The notes under the pieces: generated by a model
Told to the model about the DNA's origin: nothing
The model's input: the letters and a program-made list of their open reading frames with translations, nothing else
Databases searched by the model: none
DNA from: Candidatus Aciduliprofundum sp.
GTDB taxonomy: Archaea > Thermoplasmatota > Thermoplasmata > Thermoplasmatales > Aciduliprofundaceae
Direction of reading: 5' to 3'
Length of the DNA stretch: 37,646 nucleotides
NCBI GenBank assembly: GCA_015520565.1
Contig: WAPW01000061.1
Span: 1 to 37,646, forward strand
Shown: piece by piece, positions 5,745-37,646 of the stretch
How the letters are laid out: each line of letters starts with the position of its first letter
Position numbering within the stretch: position 1 is the stretch's first letter
Program-made: the position numbers and the translations under genes

Positions 5745-5849
5745 AGTTATTTAATGCTGGTCAGGGTATTTATAGATTTTGAGTGAAATTTTTCAAATTT
5801 TAGCAATTATACACGAAAGTAATAAATAAAAGCTGTGAGATGGCAAAAT

Positions 5850-7091
5850 ATGATTAAGGGTAAAATTTCATCTATAATAACCTTGATTCTCGCAACTCTG
5901 CTATTGGGCATCTATATTTTTCAAAATGCACCCTCAATTAAAAATTCAAATAATGAAATCAAACCGCAATGGAGTAATGGAGGAGTTAATACCGAGAATC
6001 TCCAAGCTCTAGGGTATGCAAACAACAGATTTGCACTTTCTCTATTCAATGAAATATGGGGGCGGGAGAATAATACATTTTTCTCTCCATTAAGTATATG
6101 GATAGCCCTAGCAATGCTCTACGAGGGGGCAGAGGGGGAGAGCGCAGCTCAATTGCAAAAAGCTCTTTATCTGCCTAAGAATAAAACAATTCTGCGGGAA
6201 AACATAAAGTATCTCCTTGATAAATTGAATAACGGGGAGAATTATACTCTAAAAATAGCAAATGCCCTTTGGCCCCATGCAAATTCATCTGTCAAGAAAG
6301 AGTATGTAGATATCTTGGAAAATTATTACCACGCGTATCTACATTATCTCAACTATGCCAAAAACCCTGAGAAAGCAAGAGAAACGATAAACTCTTGGGT
6401 TGAAAATCAAACAAACGGAAAGATAAAAGAGCTGTTGCATAAAGGAGATATTAACCCTCAAACAATTCTTGTGCTAACAAATGCCATATATTTTTACGGA
6501 TTATGGAGCCATCCATTCAACGCTTCAAAAACCACTGATGACTATTTCTTCACTCCTCATGGCAAAGTAAAGGTAAAAATGATGCACGATGAGCTCAAAT
6601 TGAAATACACGGAAGATGAGAATGTGCAAATTGTAGAACTTCCATACAAGGGCAATAATATCTCAATGGTCGTTATTCTTCCAAAAACACAGAATTTTGA
6701 AATAAATCTTGCCAAGATTCAAAAATGGAGAGAAAATTTGAGAGATGCCGAAGTAAATATTTCATTTCCAAAATTTGAGATGAAGGAGAGATTGAACTTA
6801 AAAAATTCCTTAGAAAAATTGGGAATTAAGGACATATTCAATCCAGCAAAGGCAAATTTAAATGGGATAGCTCCTTCATTGAGCGTAAGTGATGTTGTAC
6901 ATCAAAGCTATGTTAAAGTTGATGAAAAAGGAACTGAAGCGGCAGCAGCCACAGGCGTATCGGTGAGGGCAACTGCACTACCTCTCCTACCCCATGTAGT
7001 ATTCAAAGCAGACCATCCATTCCTCTTTCTAATACAAGACAAAATAACGGGGAGCATACTATTTATGGGCTGGCTCGCTACTCCTTCATAG
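5850..7091 (+). CDS. Exported serpin (serine protease inhibitor)
   Basis: A serpin-fold protein of about 413 residues. An N-terminal membrane segment or signal (IITLILATLLLGIYIF) indicates export or outer-face anchoring. Serpin landmarks include NTFFSPLSIWIALAMLYEGAEGESAAQL, the NAIYFYGLW strand, the hinge VDEKGTEAAAATG, and the C-terminal DHPFLFLIQDKITGSILFMGWL. The small-residue hinge (TEAAAATG) is that of inhibitory serpins. Counting from the hinge puts P1 near the T-A-L in RATALP, suggesting an elastase- or subtilisin-like target; the register is uncertain by one. A GTG at 5835 is also in frame, but the TATA-like AATAAATAA ending near 5829 is about 25 bases before the ATG at 5850, which favours a leaderless ATG. 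Confidence 0.9.
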   Translation: MIKGKISSIITLILATLLLGIYIFQNAPSIKNSNNEIKPQWSNGGVNTENLQALGYANNRFALSLFNEIWGRENNTFFSPLSIWIALAMLYEGAEGESAAQLQKALYLPKNKTILRENIKYLLDKLNNGENYTLKIANALWPHANSSVKKEYVDILENYYHAYLHYLNYAKNPEKARETINSWVENQTNGKIKELLHKGDINPQTILVLTNAIYFYGLWSHPFNASKTTDDYFFTPHGKVKVKMMHDELKLKYTEDENVQIVELPYKGNNISMVVILPKTQNFEINLAKIQKWRENLRDAEVNISFPKFEMKERLNLKNSLEKLGIKDIFNPAKANLNGIAPSLSVSDVVHQSYVKVDEKGTEAAAATGVSVRATALPLLPHVVFKADHPFLFLIQDKITGSILFMGWLATPS

Positions 7092-7654: not shown

Positions 7655-8441
7655 ATGGTATGGAGCATTCAAAATTGAAGGAGGAGGAGAAGTAAAGGAG
7701 AAATACATATTTCCAGCTGAACAAAGAGCCGAGATTCTCGTGAGAATAAGAGAAGGAGATTACAGCGTTATTCCGTTCAAAGATAATAACATAGTTTTTG
7801 AAGGAGAGCTCAAGGATAAGAGAGCATTAATATCCACTGCAATAGAAGTTGCCAAAATAGAGATGAAAGAGAAGCTCCGAGAGGATTACATACTCATTGA
7901 GAATCTCAACACATACGATGACCTAATCTCTACAATAAATTTGCTAAGTGAGAGAGCATTAGAATGGGATAGAATTGCAGAAATTAAGGGCAAGAATATG
8001 GAGAGTGGAGATATGTTAAAGAAGGAGATTGAATCTATTGAGAAATTAAAGGATGAAATTGCAGATGAGATTAATAATTTAAGCAAGAATGTATGCCTAA
8101 ATCTTGCATATCTTGTAGGGCCAATAATAGCAGCTCGGCTCATAGCAAGTGCGGGTGGATTGAGAAGATTGGCAAATTTGCCTGCAAGTACAATACAGGT
8201 GCTAGGCGCCGAAGATGCATTTTTCCGGCATTTAAAATCGGGAGCAAAATGTCCAAAGCATGGCATAATCTTCCGAGTTCCATGGGTTAGAAACTCTCCT
8301 AAAAAATTGAGGGGCAAGATTGCAAGAACTTTAGCAGCTAAGATTGCCATTGCTGCAAAAGTGGATTATTATAAAGGCGATTTCATAGGAGATAAATTAA
8401 AAGAGGAGATGGAGAAGAGAGTGGAGGAGATAAGAAAATGA
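7641..8441 (+). CDS. Compact Nop5/Nop56-type C/D box RNP core protein
   Basis: A 266-residue protein. Its C-terminal 115 residues are an unmistakable Nop domain: LAYLVGPIIAARLIASAGGLRRLANLPASTIQVLGAED, then KHGIIFRVPWVR, then RGKIARTLAAKIAIAAKVDYYKGD. Archaeal Nop5 bridges L7Ae-bound C/D guide RNA to fibrillarin for 2'-O-methylation. Residues 1-110 fit a fibrillarin-binding N-terminal domain, and about 115-155 a short coiled coil. Typical Nop5 is nearer 380-420 residues, so the coiled coil and basic tail are reduced. The start is ambiguous: a TTG at 7641 with GGTGAGG five bases upstream, or the GTG at 7647. No fibrillarin gene is adjacent, although it commonly is. It overlaps the MoaE-like gene by four bases. 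Confidence 0.85.
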   Translation: MIVIKWYGAFKIEGGGEVKEKYIFPAEQRAEILVRIREGDYSVIPFKDNNIVFEGELKDKRALISTAIEVAKIEMKEKLREDYILIENLNTYDDLISTINLLSERALEWDRIAEIKGKNMESGDMLKKEIESIEKLKDEIADEINNLSKNVCLNLAYLVGPIIAARLIASAGGLRRLANLPASTIQVLGAEDAFFRHLKSGAKCPKHGIIFRVPWVRNSPKKLRGKIARTLAAKIAIAAKVDYYKGDFIGDKLKEEMEKRVEEIRK

Positions 8442-13459: not shown

Positions 13460-14764
13460 ATGTTGATAATACCCGGAATCTTCAAAGAAGCACACGCTAA
13501 AGCTGCAAAAGTATATGGTGCCGACAAAACCTTATTTAGCGTGAATGGCACTACAGGTAGCAATTTCATAGTATTAAGAATGCTAACTTTAGAATACGAA
13601 TCACCCCAAATTTTAGTCACAAGAAATATTCACCATTCCATACTCCACGCTGCAGAATGGCTTGGAATAAAATTCAGATTCATAAAATCCTCCTATGACC
13701 CTCAGTTTGAAAGCTTGATTCCACCAAAGCCAGAGGATGTTCTTGACACTCTCAACAATTACCCAGAGAGCAATGCTGTAATCATCTCTTCTCCCACATA
13801 CTCGGGACTTGCTGCAAAACTAAGAGATATTGTAAAGGTCGTGAAGAATTTTGATAAGGAGATAAAAGTAATCGTTGACGAGGCTTGGGGCTCTCACTTC
13901 CATTTCAGCGATGAATTACCTAAGAGTGCAATGCAGGCTGGAGCGGATATAGCCATGCAGAGCACACACAAACAAGGAGGATCTTTACAGCAAACTGGAA
14001 TGATTCACTGGAAGGAAAAATATGTGAATAGCGAACTGATGTACGAGGCTTTTCGAGAATACGCCACTACAAGCCCATCCTATCATCTCCTCGCTTCTCT
14101 GGATTCTGTAAGGGCAATTATGGAGAGAAATGGGAAAGATCTAGTGGAATCTTTGATAAAGAAGGCGGAGTACTTCAAAGATTTACTCGGTAAGAAATTG
14201 ATTCCCCCATTAAAAATAATGGATGATTCCCTTGAGTTTGACCTCGTAAAAGATTACATTTCCGGCTATGATAAGACAAAAACTGCAATAGCGCTTACGA
14301 AATTTAAAGAAACTGGATTTGAGCTTGGTAATCTTCTAGCTAAGAATAAAATAATTGTGGAGAAGAGCAGCCTTAATACAATTCTTATGCTAACAACTTT
14401 TTCATTATCCTATGGAGAAATAGACAAAACTGTAAGGGTCTTGTCCTCCCTAATAAAAGAGTTCCACAAGATAGGAAAGAAAGAATTGATTCAGAATCCA
14501 TTCCAGCATTTAGAAACGAAGCCAGTTATTGAGCCACATACAGCTAGAAGAGTAGCTCAAACAATAGGAAGGATAGTTCCACTCAAAGATGCAATAGACA
14601 AGATTGCAGCAGAGCACATAGAAATTTATCCTCTGGGAGTTCCAGTCATTCTTGAAGGGTTTAGAATTACCGAGAATAATGTTCGCTATCTTCTAAATGT
14701 GAAGGAGAGAGGAGGTCATATAAGCGCCAGAGATCCTTCCCTTCAAACGATATATGTGCTATAA
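13460..14764 (+). CDS. Orn/Lys/Arg decarboxylase-family PLP enzyme, N-terminus in another frame
   Basis: 434 residues of a fold type I PLP enzyme related to basic amino acid decarboxylases. AKVYGADKTLFSVNGTTGSN is the diagnostic early motif, IVDEAWGSHFHFSDELP holds the PLP-nitrogen aspartate and a nearby histidine, and MQSTHKQGGSLQQTG holds the Schiff-base lysine. A C-terminal domain follows from about residue 330 (PFQHLETKPVIEPHTARRVAQTIGRIVP, then YPLGVPVILEGF). It would decarboxylate arginine, lysine or ornithine for polyamine synthesis or acid resistance; the substrate cannot be read from sequence. The ATG at 13460 is only the first start in this frame. The native start is probably 13300, with a frameshift near 13441. 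Confidence 0.8.
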   Translation: MLIIPGIFKEAHAKAAKVYGADKTLFSVNGTTGSNFIVLRMLTLEYESPQILVTRNIHHSILHAAEWLGIKFRFIKSSYDPQFESLIPPKPEDVLDTLNNYPESNAVIISSPTYSGLAAKLRDIVKVVKNFDKEIKVIVDEAWGSHFHFSDELPKSAMQAGADIAMQSTHKQGGSLQQTGMIHWKEKYVNSELMYEAFREYATTSPSYHLLASLDSVRAIMERNGKDLVESLIKKAEYFKDLLGKKLIPPLKIMDDSLEFDLVKDYISGYDKTKTAIALTKFKETGFELGNLLAKNKIIVEKSSLNTILMLTTFSLSYGEIDKTVRVLSSLIKEFHKIGKKELIQNPFQHLETKPVIEPHTARRVAQTIGRIVPLKDAIDKIAAEHIEIYPLGVPVILEGFRITENNVRYLLNVKERGGHISARDPSLQTIYVL

Positions 14765-28486: not shown

Positions 28487-28969
28487 ATGATGCAATGCAG
28501 TTTCGTGGAAAGATTAGTGTTGGATTCCTCCGCATTAATTGAGGGTTTCGTTCCTCCTGCAAACTATGAAATTTACATTCCTCCGGGCGTGGCAGAGGAA
28601 GTTAGGGATAAATCCTTTGATTTTACCCTTTTAAAAATTGTCACTCCTTCAAGATACAATACTAAGCTTGCAGTAAAGGCAGCAAAAGAAACGGGTGATT
28701 TTCCCTCACTCTCCAATGTGGATATTGAAATTATAGCTCTGGCTCTTCAGCTAAATGCCAGAATAATTACGGATGACTATGCAATTCAGAATGTTGCCGC
28801 TCATCTCGGGTTAGATTTTGAAGGTGTGCATCAAGAAAAGATAAAAGAGAAGAGAAAGTGGAAGTGGAGATGCACTTCCTGCGGGAGATACTTCAATCAT
28901 TACTATGAGCAATGCCCAGTATGTGGTGGAAAATTAAAGAGGGTAAGAAGCTCGGGAAAGAAAATATAA
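28487..28969 (+). CDS. nob1: NOB1-type ribosome maturation endonuclease
   Basis: A 160-residue protein: an N-terminal PIN domain with the acidic residues in LVLDSSALIEGF, PGVAEEVRD, SNVDIEIIALAL and IITDDYAIQNVA, then a zinc ribbon WRCTSCGRYF and CPVCGGKLKR at the C-terminus. This PIN-plus-ribbon layout is archaeal NOB1, which cuts the 3' end of 16S rRNA. The open frame continues upstream to 28196, but that extension is the leuC gene read backwards. The TATA-like ATTTATTTAATAC about 30 bases before the ATG at 28487 supports the short form, leaderless. It is the last clearly chromosomal gene before the truncated tRNA. Confidence 0.92.
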   Translation: MMQCSFVERLVLDSSALIEGFVPPANYEIYIPPGVAEEVRDKSFDFTLLKIVTPSRYNTKLAVKAAKETGDFPSLSNVDIEIIALALQLNARIITDDYAIQNVAAHLGLDFEGVHQEKIKEKRKWKWRCTSCGRYFNHYYEQCPVCGGKLKRVRSSGKKI

Positions 28970-28976
28970 AGGAAAA

Positions 28977-28985
28977 AATTATAAT
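28977..28985 (+). promoter_or_regulatory. TATA box of the interrupted tRNA gene
   Basis: AATTATAAT, preceded by a GGAAAAA stretch, lies about 25 bases before the inferred 5' end of the tRNA half at 29008. It is the spacing expected for a tRNA promoter, and suggests the host promoter stayed with the truncated 5' half. Confidence 0.45.
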
Positions 28986-29007
28986 CTCCAAAGCAATGCG
29001 CCTACGA

Positions 29008-29048
29008 GCAGGGGTTACCGAGCCAGGTCAAAGTGCGGGATTTAGGGT
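29008..29048 (+). other. Attachment-site remnant: 5' half of a tRNA-Leu(UAG) gene
   Basis: From 29008 the sequence reads as the 5' half of an archaeal class II tRNA: acceptor strand GCAGGGG, T8, the D-loop GAGCCAGGTCAAA typical of tRNA-Leu, an anticodon-stem strand CGGGA, and the loop TTTAGGG with anticodon TAG. A tRNA would continue with TCCCG to close the stem; the sequence instead goes to TGGAG and no variable arm, T-arm or CCCCTGC acceptor strand follows. The D-stem also pairs poorly (ACC against GTG), as expected for a copy no longer under selection. Integrase coding sequence begins inside it. I infer an att site with the crossover at or near the anticodon loop. Confidence 0.72.
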
Positions 29049-29929
29049 GGAGCCTTTCTCTTAAAAAGAGAAATGCTTCAGCCAAAGAGAATGATGATAG
29101 AACAAGCTTGGTATATGATAAGCACAGAAAAGATTTTATTATCTGGATTAAAAATAGAGTTAGTGATGACCATGCTAAACATCAAATCTCATATTTAGAT
29201 AGATATCTTTCTGGAAAAATTATAACCTCTCCAGCGCAGATATCAAGGATAAGAGATAATGCAAGTAGCAAAAAACAGATAACCATAGCCATAAGAAATC
29301 TGTTGAACTATTGCGAGGAAATGGATTTGTTGGATGAGGCTTTCATAGCGAAATTGAGAAAACCACTAAAGAGTGTGAGAAGTAATCCAGATAACTATGT
29401 GCCCAATGATGAAAAGGTAAGAGAAGCATATCAAAAGATTAACCCTAAATACAAAGTTCTTTTCAAACTACTCCTCTTTAGCGGAATAAGAGCCACAGAG
29501 GCAATTGAATTTTTCAAAAACTACACTAAAGATAAGGTGGAGATTGTGGGAAATGTAGCAAGGTATCCTTTATTTTCCCTAAGAAAGAATAAGCGTTCTT
29601 ATTTTGTTTATTTCCCCGCCGATATGATCAATGAAATAGAAAATAGGGAATACACAAGAAGAGGAATATCCAACGCATTCATCAGAGCAGGATTACCATC
29701 TAAATATTTGCGTAAGTGGAACTATAATTTTCTCATTATGCATAATGTACCTGAAAGTGTGGCCGATTTCATCCAAGGGAGAAGCCCTATATCTATTGGC
29801 TCAATGCATTACTTGGCCAAGGTTAAGCAAGCTGATTACTGGTACAATAAAATTGCAAAGGAAATAGTGAGCGTGTTGAATAATGATGAGAACTTCATAG
29901 AGTTGCATCCACTAAAGGTAAAAACTTAA
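29033..29929 (+). CDS. Archaeal SSV/pNOB8-type tyrosine integrase, probably the int(C) part
   Basis: A 298-residue tyrosine recombinase of the archaeal phage-integrase type. Visible features are LLLFSGIRATEAIEFF with the first catalytic Arg, the LRKWNYNFLIMHNVPESVADFIQGRSP segment characteristic of archaeal integrases, and HYLAKVKQADYWYNKIA with the probable nucleophilic Tyr near the end. The usual GSRHY segment reads GSMHY, so one conserved Arg may be lost. The GTG at 29033 lies inside the tRNA half, and the frame stays open upstream through the tRNA to a stop at 28982-28984 without an ATG. That pattern is expected if the gene was split at attP on integration, leaving int(N) at the other end. 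Activity in this state is uncertain. Confidence 0.82.
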   Translation: MRDLGWSLSLKKRNASAKENDDRTSLVYDKHRKDFIIWIKNRVSDDHAKHQISYLDRYLSGKIITSPAQISRIRDNASSKKQITIAIRNLLNYCEEMDLLDEAFIAKLRKPLKSVRSNPDNYVPNDEKVREAYQKINPKYKVLFKLLLFSGIRATEAIEFFKNYTKDKVEIVGNVARYPLFSLRKNKRSYFVYFPADMINEIENREYTRRGISNAFIRAGLPSKYLRKWNYNFLIMHNVPESVADFIQGRSPISIGSMHYLAKVKQADYWYNKIAKEIVSVLNNDENFIELHPLKVKT

Positions 29930-30312: not shown

Positions 30313-31980
30313 ATGCTCAAGAAGACCAAAATTATCTTGGCTGTGGTGCTTCCCATCGTGCTTGTTGTAGGCGGAGGTGGATTTTACTACGCAGCTTTTC
30401 ATCCTATGCGAGAGAATGTACAGGAAAAGCCGATTGTCAAGTTGCCTACGAGGTATGAGGGGAACATATCTATATTTCCATTTCTTGGGCCTTACTCATA
30501 TGACAGTAAAACACCCCTTAAAAAGTACTGGTTAAGAGAGTACTTTAAAGATTATTTAGAGGGTTATAGGGTGAATGAAACTGTAGATAACATAACCCTA
30601 ACAATTAATAATACTTGGTTTTCAGGGTACCCTGGATGGGAGCAACATCTTGCCTTTAATGTGACACTTAAAAGCAGCACATACATTGAAAAAGCCATAT
30701 TCATTTCCAATGCGACATACATTTATGAATTGGGTAATTTCCCAACTGCTTATTTAAGCTATCCACCAGAGTATAGTAAGTACATAGTGAAAAGAGTGGA
30801 TGTACCTCAGTATTATTATGATTTGGTGGTTTTCAAATTTGAGAAGAGCAATGTGTCTATTCAGGCTACTGATTTTGTTGATATAGATGGGGGAGATGTT
30901 AATAAAACTGTGCCATACTATTTTACCGCATACATAGAGACGAAGGACAAGATATACGAGATGAATTTCGTGTTCAATCTAACTGATGAGTGGGAACCTT
31001 ACCTTGACTTGCAGGATCTTTATTATATGGGGAACTATAGTTTCTATATCCCTGGATCAAAATACTTCTGCTATACGCCCTATGGGAAGAGTAAGGTAGT
31101 TATAAGTAATCATATTGTGCCCGGTACAAAGTATTTTTTTGCTGAGAAAGATGGAGTTTTAAGTGCAATTACTCGTTACTTGCCTGAACAGAAATATGTG
31201 AAAAAGAATTTTTATGTGAATAAACTGTTCTATTTTACACCCAAAGAGCTTAATGCAACAATTCTAAATTCTACTCCACTTGCTAAGTACTGGGAGAAAG
31301 AGTACCTAAAGAGCCATGAATGGGAAATGAATGCGGGTGGAATATCAATAGAAGTATATCCCATATACTTCTTGGGATATAATGGCACCTTTTTGGGATA
31401 TAATACCACTAAGGGACAGTTCATTCTTAATTCAATTGTTAATTCTACCAAGTATGTGGGAAATATAACATACACATTGAACGCTTTAAAAGCAATACCG
31501 CTAAATGGCGCGTACTTTGATACAGCTGTAGCTCCACAGGGAAATCCATTAAATAACGGAGCACATTACAAAAGAGTTTATAGGAACTATATGGAAGATT
31601 GGCAGGAAGTTAAATATGCTTTCAATACTGAGAATTTCACATTCTCTTCTCAGCTTTATTTGAACATATCATATTGGACCGCAAGCGAAATACCATATAG
31701 TGTAACTATAACTGTGGAACAGAAAGATTACTACTATGATATTCTGGAGAATGTTACCTATTACACATTGCAAATTCATTTTAATCTTGCTCGGGAACAA
31801 TATCCATTTTTGAATCCAAATACCACAGGACACAATGTTACCTATTTCTGCTACAACTCTTCCTGGGGTAAGGTAGTGATAAGCGACCACCTTGTTGCTG
31901 GTACTCAGTATTACTTTGTTGAGAAGAATGGAGTTTTGAGCAGAATATGGAGTCCCTATGAAGTGAGGAATGGTTGGTGA
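30313..31980 (+). CDS. Membrane-anchored surface protein with internal duplication
   Basis: A 555-residue protein of unknown family. Residues about 5-28 (KIILAVVLPIVLVVGGGGFYYAAF) are an N-terminal membrane anchor, with the rest outside. It then has two related units of about 240 residues. Each starts with TPLxKYWxxEYxK (TPLKKYWLREYFKDYLEG and TPLAKYWEKEYLKSHEWE) and ends with KVVIS-x-H-x-V-x-GT-x-YxF-x-EK-x-GVLS (SKVVISNHIVPGTKYFFAEKDGVLS and GKVVISDHLVAGTQYYFVEKNGVLS). It is rich in Tyr, Asn and N-x-S/T sites, so it is probably glycosylated. AAGGAGG eight bases before the ATG and a TATA box at 30233-30241 support the start. It could be a virion, adhesion or exclusion protein of the element. 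Confidence 0.78.
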   Translation: MLKKTKIILAVVLPIVLVVGGGGFYYAAFHPMRENVQEKPIVKLPTRYEGNISIFPFLGPYSYDSKTPLKKYWLREYFKDYLEGYRVNETVDNITLTINNTWFSGYPGWEQHLAFNVTLKSSTYIEKAIFISNATYIYELGNFPTAYLSYPPEYSKYIVKRVDVPQYYYDLVVFKFEKSNVSIQATDFVDIDGGDVNKTVPYYFTAYIETKDKIYEMNFVFNLTDEWEPYLDLQDLYYMGNYSFYIPGSKYFCYTPYGKSKVVISNHIVPGTKYFFAEKDGVLSAITRYLPEQKYVKKNFYVNKLFYFTPKELNATILNSTPLAKYWEKEYLKSHEWEMNAGGISIEVYPIYFLGYNGTFLGYNTTKGQFILNSIVNSTKYVGNITYTLNALKAIPLNGAYFDTAVAPQGNPLNNGAHYKRVYRNYMEDWQEVKYAFNTENFTFSSQLYLNISYWTASEIPYSVTITVEQKDYYYDILENVTYYTLQIHFNLAREQYPFLNPNTTGHNVTYFCYNSSWGKVVISDHLVAGTQYYFVEKNGVLSRIWSPYEVRNGW

Positions 31981-32606: not shown

Positions 32607-33959
32607 ATGTATGAACAATTTGTAAATAGAGAGAATGAAATGAGATTTTTAAAGAGAGCGTATGAGAGTGAGCGTGCTGAGCTAATAATAATTTATGGAA
32701 GAAGGAGGGTGGGAAAGACAGAATTGGCCAGGAAATCTGCAGAGGAAAAAGAACATATTTACTTTTTTGCAGAAGAAACCTTAGAGGAGGAGAACTTAAA
32801 GAATTTTAAGACTCTTGTAGCCAAGTATCTGAAGAATGATATAATTGAGAAGGCAGAGCTAAGCTGGGAAGAAGTTTTCAAGTTGTTGAAAGATGAGAAT
32901 CTCGTGATAATAATTGATGAATTTCCGAACATGATAAGGGAGAATAAGAGTATAGTTTCCAAATTTCAAAGAATATGGGATGAGATATTATCCACATCAA
33001 AGATAAAACTAGTTCTTTTGGGCTCATCCATAAGCGTGATGGAATCTCAAGTTCTAGGATACCGCAGTCCATTGTATGGCAGGAGAACGGGACAAATTTA
33101 TCTCAAACCGCTAAAGTTCATACATCTCAAAGAGTTCTTCCCTGAAAAATCCTTAGAAGAGATAGTAAGAATATACGGACTCACAGATGGCATTCCTGCA
33201 TACATAAGAGAGGTTCAATATCGCTTTAAGATTGGTGAGAAATTTGGAGAGGTATTTATGCCCAATAAACCTCTATTTGAGGAGGCAGAGTACCTTTTGA
33301 GGTATGAGATAAGGGATCCTGTAAGGTATGCTCAGATACTAAAAGCCATATCTCTGGGCTACACTAAGTTTGGTGAGATTGTGAATTTCACGGGATTTCC
33401 AAACTCCACGGTCTCACAATACTTGAACAACCTTGAAACTCTCCACATAGTTGAGGAGGAGTATCCAATTGGAGAGAGCAGGAAAAGAAATGCAAGGTAC
33501 AAAATATCGGATAACTATTTCAGATTCTATTTCAGGTTCATTTATCCCAACAAATCTCTACTATTAGGGGGAGGAAAAATACCAGCCTTTGAGAATAAAT
33601 ATAATCAATACCTTGGCTATGTGTTTGAGGATGTTGCCCAGGAGCTTTTGTGGACATTAAGTAAAGAAGGAAAGCTACCTTTTCAAATTCAAGAGATGGG
33701 GAGATGGTGGAAAAAGGGTGAGGAAATAGATGTGGTGGCTATAAATAGAGATGAAAGGAAAGCCCTTCTGGTTGAGGTAAAGTGGAAAGATCTGATGCCT
33801 AGAGAGGTCCAAGGGATTATTGAGAAATTGAAAGATAAAACAAAGCCTCATCTAATTCGTGGCTATGGGCTCCATTATGGAGTATTCGCTAAACACATAA
33901 AATACAAGAAAAAAGTGAGAGAAGGCTACTTAGTATTTGACCTACAAGATTTTGAATGA
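32607..33959 (+). CDS. Archaeal ATPase (STAND-like) with C-terminal DUF234 nuclease-like domain
   Basis: A 450-residue protein. Walker A is IIYGRRRVGKTEL (residues about 28-40) and Walker B is NLVIIIDEFPNM, typical of the archaeal ATPase family. A winged-helix segment (ILKAISLGYTKFGEIVNFTGFPNSTVSQYLNNLETLHIVEEEYP) follows. The C-terminal DUF234 domain contains GRWWKKGEEIDVVAINRDERKALLVEVKWK, with an E-x-D ... E-V-K arrangement as in PD-(D/E)XK nucleases. These proteins are common and often multi-copy in archaea and near mobile DNA; their role is unknown. A TATA-like CTTAAATAC about 27 bases before the ATG suggests a leaderless transcript. Confidence 0.88.
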   Translation: MYEQFVNRENEMRFLKRAYESERAELIIIYGRRRVGKTELARKSAEEKEHIYFFAEETLEEENLKNFKTLVAKYLKNDIIEKAELSWEEVFKLLKDENLVIIIDEFPNMIRENKSIVSKFQRIWDEILSTSKIKLVLLGSSISVMESQVLGYRSPLYGRRTGQIYLKPLKFIHLKEFFPEKSLEEIVRIYGLTDGIPAYIREVQYRFKIGEKFGEVFMPNKPLFEEAEYLLRYEIRDPVRYAQILKAISLGYTKFGEIVNFTGFPNSTVSQYLNNLETLHIVEEEYPIGESRKRNARYKISDNYFRFYFRFIYPNKSLLLGGGKIPAFENKYNQYLGYVFEDVAQELLWTLSKEGKLPFQIQEMGRWWKKGEEIDVVAINRDERKALLVEVKWKDLMPREVQGIIEKLKDKTKPHLIRGYGLHYGVFAKHIKYKKKVREGYLVFDLQDFE

Positions 33960-34073
33960 GCTTTTATTTTTCATAATTTTCATAAAGTGGGATCGGCAAA
34001 GTTTATCGGTAATCATTATTGGGGATTATTAGTAAGAAAAACTTATATTCTTTTATATCATTTATATCCTAAA

Positions 34074-34367
34074 ATGAAGGTGGATAATTTAGATGAGCTA
34101 GAGAGGATTATAAAAGACTGGGATGGAGAGATAGTTGTTGAAGCATACGATATAATAGACCACAAAGGCATTGCAGCTCTATCTCTTGTTAAGAATGATG
34201 AATTTTACGAGGGTATAGAATTTGAAGGAAATAGGGAAGATATACTATCCTTATTCACCGATGTTTTAAAGAAGAATATAGACAAGGTTTTAGAAGAGCA
34301 GAAGGTGACTGTGCAATTTGCAGAGAAGGACATAAAAAGAGCACTTAAGAAATTGAGAGAAGAATAA
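34074..34367 (+). CDS. 97-residue protein of unknown function
   Basis: A small protein with a mixed alpha/beta pattern (MKVDNLDELERIIKDWDGEIVVEAYDIIDHKGIAALSLV, then helices ILSLFTDVLKKNIDKVLEEQ and AEKDIKRALKKLREE). No cysteine, membrane segment or known motif is visible. The frame is open upstream to 33987, but a TATA-like CTTATATTC at 34042-34050 lies about 27 bases before the ATG at 34074, so the short, leaderless form is preferred. It sits between the ATPase and the replication gene on the same strand. I do not recognise the family. Confidence 0.65.
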   Translation: MKVDNLDELERIIKDWDGEIVVEAYDIIDHKGIAALSLVKNDEFYEGIEFEGNREDILSLFTDVLKKNIDKVLEEQKVTVQFAEKDIKRALKKLREE

Positions 34368-34538: not shown

Positions 34539-37310
34539 ATGAACGGAATACATAGAATTGGAATTGCAGGAATAATAAGAAAAAGAGAGAAAAAGAATGA
34601 CGAAATAAGGAAGTACATAGCGAAGTATCTGGAGTGGGGCTTTAACATAGTTCCCGGAAGAGAGCATACAAAGTATCCTGTGGAAGACTGGAAAAAGTAC
34701 CAGAGTGAGAGGTATCCCAGAGAGAAGCTCAAAGAATATACGGATGTGGGAAATAGAAACTGGATGGTAATATGCGGAGCTATTAGTGACAATCTCGTTG
34801 TCCTGGACTTTGATGACCCTCAGCTTTACAAGAAATACACAGAGAAGATAGAGAATAAATTTATGGATACTTTCATAGTCAGAACTGGGAAGAAGGGATA
34901 CCATATCTACTACAGAACTCCAGAGCCAGTGAGATCCACCAAGCTTGGAAAGATAGATATTCTGGGCAAGGGAAAATTGGCAATGTTGCCTCCAAGTGTC
35001 CATCCAGAAACTAGCAGAACATACATAATCTGGGAGGACAGAAAACCATTAAAATTGAAAAATGAGGAATGGCAACATGTATTCCATGTTCTCATGGATA
35101 TAACAGGGACTAACTCTAAAGTTAATAATACAAGTAAAACTGAGGGAGAAATAGCCAAAATCATTCGGATTGTTGGACCCTACTGGAAGAAAGGCCAGAG
35201 AGATGCATTAGAGTATGCACTCTTGGGTTACATGCGTAAGAAAGGAGTACCTATAGAGATAGCCAGCAAGGTTTTGAGAGGATTAATAACCTTAACTGGG
35301 GACGAAGAAGCAATTATGAGATTGAAGAATTTAGAGAGAAATTACGAGCTACCTGTGGATGAGTTGAAGGGGTACTCACAGCTAAAAGATATTCTTTCAA
35401 AGGAGGACTTAAAGAAGGTAGAAAAGTATGTGATGGCTTTATCTCCAAACCCTAAATTAGAGGAAAAGAAAAATGAGAAAAATAAAGGGAAGATGAAGAA
35501 GGTTGTATCGTACATTGCTCTTCCCGATAAACTCTATTTAGCAGTAAAGGGGGATAATGACAATTATTACTTTGCTTATTTGGATGAGGGAGAAGTAAAG
35601 CTTACCAAAGTTATAGAATTAGAAGATGCCATATATGAACCGAGAAATCCCTATGGGGATCCTGTATATTATCCAACTACTAACATAATGAATGCCAAGT
35701 ATGTGGAAACTAATGAGTTAATAAAGAATATAGAAGAGCATCTCAAAAAGTATATAGATTTGGAGGATAGAGACTTGGAATTTTCAATATACTACATCCT
35801 ATTTACATGGTTTTATAGAAAAGTTCATACTGTACCATATCTTGCATTTAGAGGAGATACCGGGAAAGGAAAAACTAGGATGTTGGATGTTATAGGCCAG
35901 TTATGCTTCTATCCATTGATCACATCTGGAGGCTCTTCAAGAAGTGCAATAATGAGAGCCCAAGAAGATTATAAAGGAACTTTGGTGCTGGATGAAAGTG
36001 ATTTCAGAGGAGATAAAGAGCATGAGATGGCAAAGTACATAAATTCAGGCTTTGAAGATTATAAGCCATTTCTTTTAACAAACCGCAATAGTGGAAAAAG
36101 AGAAAGATACGATAATTTCTGCCCAAAAATACTAGGAATGAGGGAAGCTTTCCAAGATGCGGCCAGTGAAGGGAGAATATTCACAATAAGTCCTTTGGAG
36201 ACTATGAGAACGGATATTCCACCAAATCTTGACGACATATACTTCCAAGAAACAGATTTGCTAAGGGATTTAATTGCAAGATGGGCCTTGGAGAACTGGA
36301 GCAAAATCAATGGAGAATACATGGAAATAATTCAGCAGTTGCCATTGGAAGGACGCATAAAACAATTGGGAGCTCCTCTAACTATACTCATTCCTATTCT
36401 TGGAGAAGATTATGCAAAGAAATTGATATACTGGCTTCTTAGAAGGCAAAAAGAAATTGCAAAGGACAGGGCAAACTCTACAGAGGGAATTATTTTCAAT
36501 GCAGTTGTAGATATAAGCCAGAGGATACTAGAAGATAGAGTAGATGTGGGAGATAGCATAGATTATTATGGAGAGGAGAAGTTCATAACAACAAGCATGG
36601 TAATAGAGGAGACTGGGCTAAGCAAGAATACAGTTAAAAGAAAACTCCAAGAAATTGGATTTGAGACACTAAGGAAGAAAGTGAAAATTGGAGATAAACG
36701 CACTACTGCAACATTGATATATATCTCAAGTACCCGCAGATGGGTTGAGAACTGGAGACGCTATAGGTGGGGAGAAGAATTGATAGATGTACCTCCGTTC
36801 CTGAAATTACCAAATAGAGAATATAAAAATATAGACAAATATAGAGAACTATTAAACACTATGAAAAACTTCTCCATCAAAGATGTCTCAACTATCCCAG
36901 TTGGCTCAACCATAGGACACAGGGAGAAAAATGAGAATGAAACACTAAAAAGTATATTATCCTATTTTAATTCTAATTTTAGGGTGCATGCATGGGTTGA
37001 GACTGTTGAGCCAGTTGAGACAGGTAATCCTCCCTTAGCGGGTAATTCTTTGGTATATGGCAGGGCGAGAAAGGACTTTAAAGTTGCATTGCCCGATGGA
37101 GATGCTTCTCTAAAGAAGGGTAGAGTGTATATATTTGAGAAAAGAGTTGCGGATATACTAAAAAAGAATAATCTTATTTCTATATGCAATAATATCCATC
37201 CAAGTTTGTGGAGAGTTAATAATTTACCAAAGAAATTTAGGCCACCTTTCCATAGTGTCTCTCAAAATAAATCCTACGGTGATTCTTCTTCCACCATTGC
37301 TGAAACTTAG
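34539..37310 (+). CDS. Primase-polymerase/helicase replication protein, pRN1 ORF904 type
   Basis: A 923-residue multidomain replicase. The N-terminal PrimPol domain has the metal-binding D-F-D (Asp90, Asp92 in VVLDFDDP), His122 in GKKGYHIYYR, and IDILGKGKLAMLPPSVHP as the third motif. A linker leads to an ATPase with Walker A GDTGKGKTRM (about 439-445) and Walker B GTLVLDESDF. A winged helix (TTSMVIEETGLSKNTVKRKLQEIGF) lies near residues 685-710. The C-terminal 140 residues include KKGRVYIFEKRVADILKKNNLI, reminiscent of a small replication-factor fold. In plasmid pRN1 this arrangement primes and unwinds DNA, so this is the likely initiator of the element. Length is close to ORF904. Confidence 0.87.
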   Translation: MNGIHRIGIAGIIRKREKKNDEIRKYIAKYLEWGFNIVPGREHTKYPVEDWKKYQSERYPREKLKEYTDVGNRNWMVICGAISDNLVVLDFDDPQLYKKYTEKIENKFMDTFIVRTGKKGYHIYYRTPEPVRSTKLGKIDILGKGKLAMLPPSVHPETSRTYIIWEDRKPLKLKNEEWQHVFHVLMDITGTNSKVNNTSKTEGEIAKIIRIVGPYWKKGQRDALEYALLGYMRKKGVPIEIASKVLRGLITLTGDEEAIMRLKNLERNYELPVDELKGYSQLKDILSKEDLKKVEKYVMALSPNPKLEEKKNEKNKGKMKKVVSYIALPDKLYLAVKGDNDNYYFAYLDEGEVKLTKVIELEDAIYEPRNPYGDPVYYPTTNIMNAKYVETNELIKNIEEHLKKYIDLEDRDLEFSIYYILFTWFYRKVHTVPYLAFRGDTGKGKTRMLDVIGQLCFYPLITSGGSSRSAIMRAQEDYKGTLVLDESDFRGDKEHEMAKYINSGFEDYKPFLLTNRNSGKRERYDNFCPKILGMREAFQDAASEGRIFTISPLETMRTDIPPNLDDIYFQETDLLRDLIARWALENWSKINGEYMEIIQQLPLEGRIKQLGAPLTILIPILGEDYAKKLIYWLLRRQKEIAKDRANSTEGIIFNAVVDISQRILEDRVDVGDSIDYYGEEKFITTSMVIEETGLSKNTVKRKLQEIGFETLRKKVKIGDKRTTATLIYISSTRRWVENWRRYRWGEELIDVPPFLKLPNREYKNIDKYRELLNTMKNFSIKDVSTIPVGSTIGHREKNENETLKSILSYFNSNFRVHAWVETVEPVETGNPPLAGNSLVYGRARKDFKVALPDGDASLKKGRVYIFEKRVADILKKNNLISICNNIHPSLWRVNNLPKKFRPPFHSVSQNKSYGDSSSTIAET

Positions 37311-37509: not shown

Positions 37510-37646
37510 ATGGCAGGAAGACCTCGCACAAAAAATGGGAAGAGTTATGTGTTTTACCTGAGCGATGAAGTGGATGCTTTAATCGAGCAGTACAAAGGTA
37601 ACCTTTCCCGGAGTAATTTTGTGGAAGAGGCAATAAAGTACTATGT
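37510..37646 (+). CDS. Ribbon-helix-helix DNA-binding protein (cut off by window)
   Basis: An ATG at 37510 begins MAGRPRTKNGKSYVFYLSDEVDALIEQY and continues GNLSRSNFVEEAIKYY to the window edge, 45 codons with no stop. The pattern (basic tip, a beta strand YVFYLSDEV, then two helices) is a CopG/Arc-type ribbon-helix-helix. Such proteins control plasmid copy number or other element genes in archaea. An AT-rich stretch (TTAATTATATAATTT) ends at the start codon. The 3' end is outside the window. Confidence 0.75.
   Translation, partial: MAGRPRTKNGKSYVFYLSDEVDALIEQYKGNLSRSNFVEEAIKYY

What the first reader, a model, noticed from the sequence alone, without database searches (positions are those of the whole stretch)
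29008..29048. tRNA-Leu gene split at the anticodon loop by an integrated element
The sequence has a good 5' half of tRNA-Leu(UAG) with promoter, but the anticodon stem cannot close and no 3' half follows; integrase coding starts inside it. Most known archaeal tRNA integrations keep the 3' half as the shared core. Here the 5' half is at the int side, so the functional tRNA must be rebuilt at the far end using the element's own copy of the 5' half, and transcribed from an element-borne promoter. The poor D-stem of this copy fits relaxed selection.
Basis: partly seen in the sequence, partly recalled or inferred. Interest (0 to 1): 0.72.

Follow-up and report, generated by a model that had tools for sequence, protein, structure and literature searches.

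The report
tRNA-Leu gene rebuilt by integrated element
A plasmid-like element has inserted into the middle of an archaeon's only tRNA-Leu(UAG) gene and kept it whole by supplying its own copy of the gene's front half together with a promoter, both hidden inside its integrase gene; this is a new variant of a known but uncommon way of inserting.

Summary
Window 29008-29048 is the first 42 nt of tRNA-Leu(UAG) with one base lost, and no 3' half follows. The genome's only complete tRNA-Leu(UAG) lies on contig C100, whose end overlaps the window's right end by 98 bp. There the intact tRNA is preceded by the integrase N-terminal part, which reads in frame through promoter and tRNA 5' half. The window holds the C-terminal part. 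So an ~8.7 kb element with an SSV-type self-splitting integrase (PF16795) integrated at the anticodon loop and rebuilt the tRNA at its far end. A near relative (G001) shows the uninterrupted nob1-tRNA-Leu site. G010 holds a separate complete case, with G004 as its empty site. It is not without precedent: Thermococcus pTN3 does the same. New here: the integrase is closer to pT26-2-type (3'-half) enzymes. Its Aciduliprofundaceae clade mixes 5'-half and 3'-half targeting (tRNA-Leu, tRNA-Cys versus tRNA-Leu(GAG), tRNA-Phe), and trees reject a single origin with pTN3. A well-placed tRNA-type TATA box is encoded inside int. In a complete relative, probably A. boonei, the sole tRNA-Leu(UAG) has a decayed integrase fragment as its promoter.

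The parts
28963..29048 (+). attL direct repeat: tRNA promoter plus tRNA 5' half, 87 bp in the other copy (C100 reverse complement 125-211)
   Evidence: 97.7% identical to the attR copy, one substitution and one gap
28971..28986 (+). chromosomal tRNA promoter (TATA box GGAAAAAATTATAATC), now in front of a half tRNA and IntC
   Evidence: scores 11.1 with a matrix from 36 other tRNA promoters of this genome; 0 of 5000 coding 60-mers reach it
29008..29048 (+). tRNA-Leu(UAG) 5' half, one base deleted in the D arm
   Evidence: alignment to the full tRNA at C100:16368-16452
29033..29929 (+). Int(C): catalytic part of the split tyrosine integrase; in-frame GTG inside the tRNA half
   Evidence: PF16795 E 4e-42; SSV1 integrase structures E 2e-10; FSGIR, KYLRKW and SMHY motifs present
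29049..29092 (+). hairpin just past the crossover point, at the start of the IntC-specific sequence
   Evidence: folds at -21.4 kcal/mol, z -4.6; not a significant match to the tRNA-linked hairpin model (E 0.17)
30313..31980 (+). element gene of unknown function, 555 aa, N-terminal hydrophobic segment
   Evidence: no Pfam match
32607..33959 (+). element gene: archaeal ATPase with DUF234
   Evidence: PF01637 and PF03008; a relative lies in the G003 element
33987..34367 (+). element gene, 126 aa, unknown
   Evidence: no confident Pfam or PHROG match
34539..37310 (+). element replication protein: primase-polymerase
   Evidence: PF09250 E 5e-17; pRN1 ORF904 structures E 1e-5; 48% identical to the G010 element protein
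37510..37646 (+). start of Int(N) (MAGRPRTKNGKSYVFYLSDEV...), continued on C100 through the promoter and tRNA 5' half
   Evidence: 98-bp overlap with the C100 end; homologous to IntN in G010, G003, G012

Best explanation
This is attL of an ~8.7 kb integrative plasmid-like element. In the free circle the integrase gene (376 codons) contains attP: an N-terminal domain that I read as ribbon-helix-helix, a linker whose DNA is a tRNA promoter, the 5' 42 nt of tRNA-Leu(UAG), then the catalytic domain. Recombination at the anticodon loop of the host tRNA-Leu(UAG) gene, directly after nob1, cut the integrase gene in two. The host promoter and 5' half stayed at attL joined to Int(C). The host 3' half was joined at attR to the element's promoter and 5' half, giving a complete tRNA gene. 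Shown: anatomy, target, polarity, empty sites. Inferred: that the element-borne TATA box drives the tRNA, that Int(C) is transcribed from the abandoned tRNA promoter, and that excision would need an intact integrase from elsewhere.
For: Full tRNA at C100 preceded by IntN, in frame through promoter and tRNA half. 98-bp overlap joins the contigs. The split 376-aa integrase is rebuilt across the two ends, PF16795 E 6e-42. G001 shows nob1 directly followed by the intact tRNA; flanks align at both sides. G010:C30 is a second complete case with both ends on one contig, ~6 kb apart, and G004:C100 is its empty site over 202 bp left and 190 bp right. Only one tRNA-Leu(UAG) was found in the genome. Element-borne promoter score 11.1 in G000 and 10.5 in G003 against a coding 99th percentile of 7.3.
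Against: The genome is a fragmented assembly and the contig join rests on a 98-bp overlap with two mismatches. No expression data. Element-borne promoters in G010 (5.6) and G012 (6.8) are weak, and 3'-type IntN linkers score 6.1-9.0, so a TATA-like linker is not special to 5'-half elements.
Confidence: 0.93

Rival explanations
1. The stretch is half of a split (trans-spliced) tRNA gene whose 3' half is transcribed elsewhere.
For: A promoter and a clean 5' half ending in the anticodon loop.
Against: A complete contiguous tRNA-Leu(UAG) exists; the half copy has a D-arm deletion; integrase coding follows.
Confidence: 0.01
2. Ordinary integration as described, but the rebuilt tRNA is transcribed by read-through from the integrase promoter further upstream, as proposed for pTN3, and the TATA box in the int linker is only an A-rich coding accident.
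For: 3'-type IntN linkers of the same clade also look TATA-like (6.1-9.0), and G010 and G012 score modestly. The pTN3 review states expression from the integrase promoter.
Against: In G000 the element-borne box is identical to the host promoter and correctly placed; in G003 an unrelated sequence scores 10.5 at the same distance. pTN3 itself has no such box (-8.2).
Confidence: 0.2
3. Assembly chimera: the half tRNA and the C100 end come from different strains or elements.
For: 103 contigs, contamination estimate 3.95%, two mismatches in the contig overlap.
Against: The same arrangement is on one contig in G010, and remnants lie in the complete genome G003 and in G012; the halves join into one integrase.
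Confidence: 0.04
4. A tRNA gene fragment duplicated by chance, unrelated to integration.
For: One base deleted, no longer a recognisable tRNA.
Against: Position at an integrase gene, exact stop at the anticodon loop, partner at the other end, empty sites in relatives.
Confidence: 0.01

Closest known systems
pTN3 / TKV4 integrative elements of Thermococcus (pTN3-like suicidal integrases)
   Same: attP inside int; the tRNA-Leu 5' half is shared, ending at the same tRNA position (read from the pTN3 sequence); integration splits int and separates the rebuilt tRNA from its original promoter (PMC5495485 S2 Fig; PMC8371274).
   Different: The integrase is only 24.7% identical (E 2e-10), and the tree rejects 5'-types plus pTN3 as one clade (p 0.008). 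No TATA box directly in front of the tRNA half in pTN3. The element carries a primase-polymerase and no recognised virion genes.
pT26-2 / pGE2 suicidal integrases and relatives (Archaeoglobus proviruses)
   Same: Closest named integrases (pT26-2 33.7%, E 4e-37; pGE2 32.4%; Archaeoglobus profundus provirus 34.5%); attP inside int.
   Different: They carry the tRNA 3' half in antisense (T-arm read); the window element carries the 5' half in sense.
SSV1 / pSSVi integrases of Sulfolobus
   Same: Split-gene (type I) integration; catalytic domain matches solved SSV1 integrase.
   Different: 3' half of the tRNA; distant sequence (pSSVi 25.9%).
CalSub-E1 of Ca. Caldiarchaeum and the tRNA-Thr insert of the same species
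   Same: Recombination at the 5' part of a tRNA gene in an archaeon (PMC6563490, PMC3293823).
   Different: tRNA-Ser / tRNA-Thr; the tRNA-Thr insert was assigned to a pNOB8-type integrase, whose gene is not split.

Membership tests
SSV-type (suicidal, type I) integrase elements | Integrase with Phage_integr_3 domain (PF16795) | tested here: met
   143.6 bits, E 6e-42
SSV-type (suicidal, type I) integrase elements | attP lies inside int, so integration splits it into int(N) and int(C) | tested here: met
   IntN at attR and IntC at attL are one frame across the tRNA core
SSV-type (suicidal, type I) integrase elements | Enzyme recombines attP and attB | not testable with these tools
   catalytic motifs are present; no assay
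pTN3-like elements | 5' half of a tRNA gene shared by attP and attB | tested here: met
pTN3-like elements | Integrase belongs to the pTN3-like clade | tested here: not met
   nearest relatives are DHVE2 enzymes, 3'-type among them, in a 100/99 clade; AU p 0.008 for all 5'-types with pTN3, 0.048 for window plus pTN3
pTN3-like elements | Virion (PRD1-like) genes | tested here: not met
   none among the element ORFs by Pfam or PHROGs
pT26-2-like integrases | Integrase sequence close to pT26-2 | tested here: inconclusive
   best named hits, but the tree places the Thermoplasmatota enzymes as their own group with weak deep support
pT26-2-like integrases | 3' half of tRNA as att site | tested here: not met
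   5' half in sense
Split (trans-spliced) tRNA genes | No contiguous gene for that tRNA | tested here: not met
   complete tRNA-Leu(UAG) on C100

The most novel reading that the evidence does not exclude
Within one integrase clade, elements switch between the tRNA 3' half (antisense) and the 5' half (sense) by swapping their IntN-plus-core half at the anticodon-loop crossover. The near-palindromic anticodon stem lets one catalytic domain serve both. The 5'-half state repeatedly hands the host a new, integrase-coded tRNA promoter that outlives the element. The tRNA-intron-like hairpin found just past the crossover in some of these integrase genes would further suggest that such events can leave or move tRNA introns.
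Probability: 0.35. Interest if true: 0.7.

Novelty: new variant of a known kind. Interest (0 to 1): 0.5.

Why it matters
The 2021 review of archaeal tyrosine recombinases treats 5'-half targeting as unique, in archaea, to pTN3-like integrases. Here it appears in another integrase lineage, next to 3'-half relatives, which makes the evolution of target choice directly testable. It also shows a mobile element's protein-coding sequence acting as promoter and front half of an essential single-copy tRNA gene, and in one complete genome apparently left there after the element decayed.

Tried and rejected
Pattern search with substitutions only missed the full tRNA because of the one-base deletion. No free (episomal) form or relative was found in viral contigs; among phages and plasmids only distant relatives, no close one; one fragment in named genomes, DHVE2 MAG S014_41. 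Rfam gave nothing but the tRNA itself for the region. I considered claiming that the in-gene TATA box is selected in 5'-type elements, and dropped it because 3'-type linkers score similarly. I considered calling the window hairpin a member of the tRNA-linked hairpin family, and dropped it (E 0.17). Whether host promoters were captured by elements or the reverse could not be decided: G006 and G003, and G000 and G006:C2, share short A-rich stretches in both directions.

Full report
What is there. Window 29008-29048 reads GCAGGGGTTACCGAGCCAGGTCAAAGTGCGGGATTTAGGGT. The genome's only complete tRNA-Leu(UAG) is at G000:C100:16368-16452 on the minus strand. Its first 42 nt are the same sequence plus one G in the D arm. 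BLAST gives E 2.3e-13 for the half copy, so chance is excluded.

The other end. The full tRNA lies 169 nt from the end of contig C100, with its 5' side facing that end. The outermost 98 bp of C100 repeat the last 98 bp of the window at 97.96% identity. The two contigs therefore join, and the element measures 8598 + 113 = about 8.7 kb. Upstream of the intact tRNA an open frame starts in the window at 37510 (MAGRPRTKNGKSYVFYLSDEVDALIEQYKGN...) and runs through the tRNA promoter and the tRNA 5' half (...DKGKNYNLQSNAPTSRGYRARSKVRDLG). After the core, the window continues this frame as WSLSLKKRNASAKEND.... Joined, this is a 376-aa integrase with PF16795 at E 6e-42 and a match to the solved SSV1 integrase catalytic domain. 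The N-terminal part resembles a ribbon-helix-helix domain by eye; Pfam did not call it.

Direct repeat and promoter. The repeat between the ends is 87 bp (window 28963-29048 against C100 reverse complement 125-211). It has one substitution and one gap and includes the TATA box. A position matrix built from 36 other tRNA upstream regions of this genome gives 11.1 for this promoter at the right distance. The leave-one-out median for real tRNAs is 9.0, and the 99th percentile of coding 60-mers is 7.3.

Empty sites. In G001, the nearest relative, nob1 is followed directly by the complete tRNA-Leu(UAG). The left flank and half tRNA align over 348 bp, and the tRNA plus ~44 bp of trailer on the other side. 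G002 has nob1, tRNA-Leu(UAG) and the C100 flanking transglutaminase-like gene in that order without an element. So the chromosome once read nob1, tRNA-Leu(UAG), transglutaminase-like gene, and the element sits in the anticodon loop.

A second complete case. In G010 contig C30 a half tRNA (7941-7982) is followed by IntC, and ~6 kb further on IntN runs into a complete tRNA-Leu(UAG) (13965-14049), all on one contig. G004 contig C100 is its empty site: 202 bp align on the left and 190 bp on the right, and the sequence in front of the tRNA at attR is the element's, not the host's. The element carries a related primase-polymerase (48% identity). G012 also has IntN in front of tRNA-Leu(UAG). In G003, a complete 1,486,778-bp genome that I take from memory to be A. 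boonei T469, the same nob1 site holds a decayed element. The half copy is gone and IntN has an internal stop. The only tRNA-Leu(UAG) found there (132701-132785) has the IntN linker as its upstream region, promoter score 10.5.

Not only tRNA-Leu. In G013 contig C76 an IntC follows the 5' half of tRNA-Cys. In G011 contig C153 a broken IntN lies in front of a complete tRNA-Cys. Other Thermoplasmatota integrases of this family whose target could be read carry the tRNA 3' half in antisense: tRNA-Leu(GAG) in G004, G010 C49 and G017; tRNA-Phe for the G011 C169 IntC and for IntN in G001, G006 and G008; and several in G044, G279 and G401. PF16795 occurs in 7 of 390 genomes sampled from the phylum.

Relationship. 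By sequence the integrase is nearest among named ones to pT26-2 (33.7%, E 4e-37), pGE2 and the Archaeoglobus proviruses, all of which carry a 3' half, and far from pTN3 (24.7%, E 2e-10). In a tree of catalytic parts the Aciduliprofundaceae enzymes form one clade (100/99) in which 5'-type and 3'-type are mixed. The window enzyme pairs with a 3'-type (G011 C169) at 88/85 support. Holding all 5'-types with pTN3 together is rejected (p 0.008). Holding the three local 5'-types together is rejected at p 0.019, and the local 3'-types at p 0.002. These are 21 rows with some long branches, so the number of switches is not settled, but an origin shared with pTN3 is unlikely.

What is known. [quoted passage not shown] The pTN3 paper shows a 41-bp shared stretch and separation from the original promoter (PMC5495485). 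A thaumarchaeal survey adds one 5' case, CalSub-E1 (PMC6563490). The window is therefore a new variant: same logic as pTN3, different integrase lineage and different cargo. Here the promoter box sits inside the integrase gene next to the tRNA half; in pTN3 that stretch has no such box (score -8.2; the matrix is from another genus).

Limits. Transcription was not tested. The promoter matrix also gives 6.1-9.0 for 3'-type IntN linkers, so an A-rich linker may have been a lucky preadaptation rather than a selected promoter. The assembly is fragmented. IntN trees were not built because the domain is short.

A side finding. A hairpin (AAGCCCCTTT...AAAGNGGCTTTACCC) occurs 36 times in this genome and 35 times in G003. 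The copies I compared lie in tRNA introns, at the crossover-like position in the anticodon loop, or at or close behind tRNA 3' ends. Convincing copies also sit just past the crossover in two integrase genes, G011 C169 (44.6 bits) and G013 C76 (22.9 bits). The window's own hairpin at that place is strong (z -4.6) but not a significant match, although it aligns to the G011 copy. A link between integration and tRNA introns has been proposed before (PMC3293823). This deserves separate work.

Noticed in passing
G000 genome-wide, e.g. C100:16323-16367, C97:16388-16432, C41:18574-18612; L134-L140: A hairpin family (AAGCCCCTTT...AAAGNGGCTTTACCC) with 36 copies here, 35 in G003 and 41 in G009, linked to tRNA genes: inside introns or just behind the 3' end. 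It also lies inside two integrase genes just past the crossover. Function unknown.
   Followed up: partly
L073 (G003:C1:126000-140000): The tRNA-Leu(UAG) locus of a complete relative carries a decayed element on its 5' side, and about 7 kb separates the tRNA from the transglutaminase-like gene that follows it directly in G000 and G002.
   Followed up: partly
L072 8000-8060 (G010:C30): Just past the core, the G010 IntC contains a stretch resembling the variable and T arm of tRNA-Leu (CCCGCCCCGTATGGGTTCGAGG), as if attP once held a whole tRNA copy.
   Followed up: no
window 5835-7091: A serpin-like protease inhibitor gene in an archaeon (by reading; no family search run).
   Followed up: no
G000:C6:45-129 and C54:7260-7344: tRNA-Leu(GAG) appears twice, each copy at a contig end; probably one gene split between contigs.
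   Followed up: no
window 37549-37646 against C100 end: The contig overlap has two mismatches near the C100 end, suggesting strain variation or assembly error at this junction.
   Followed up: no
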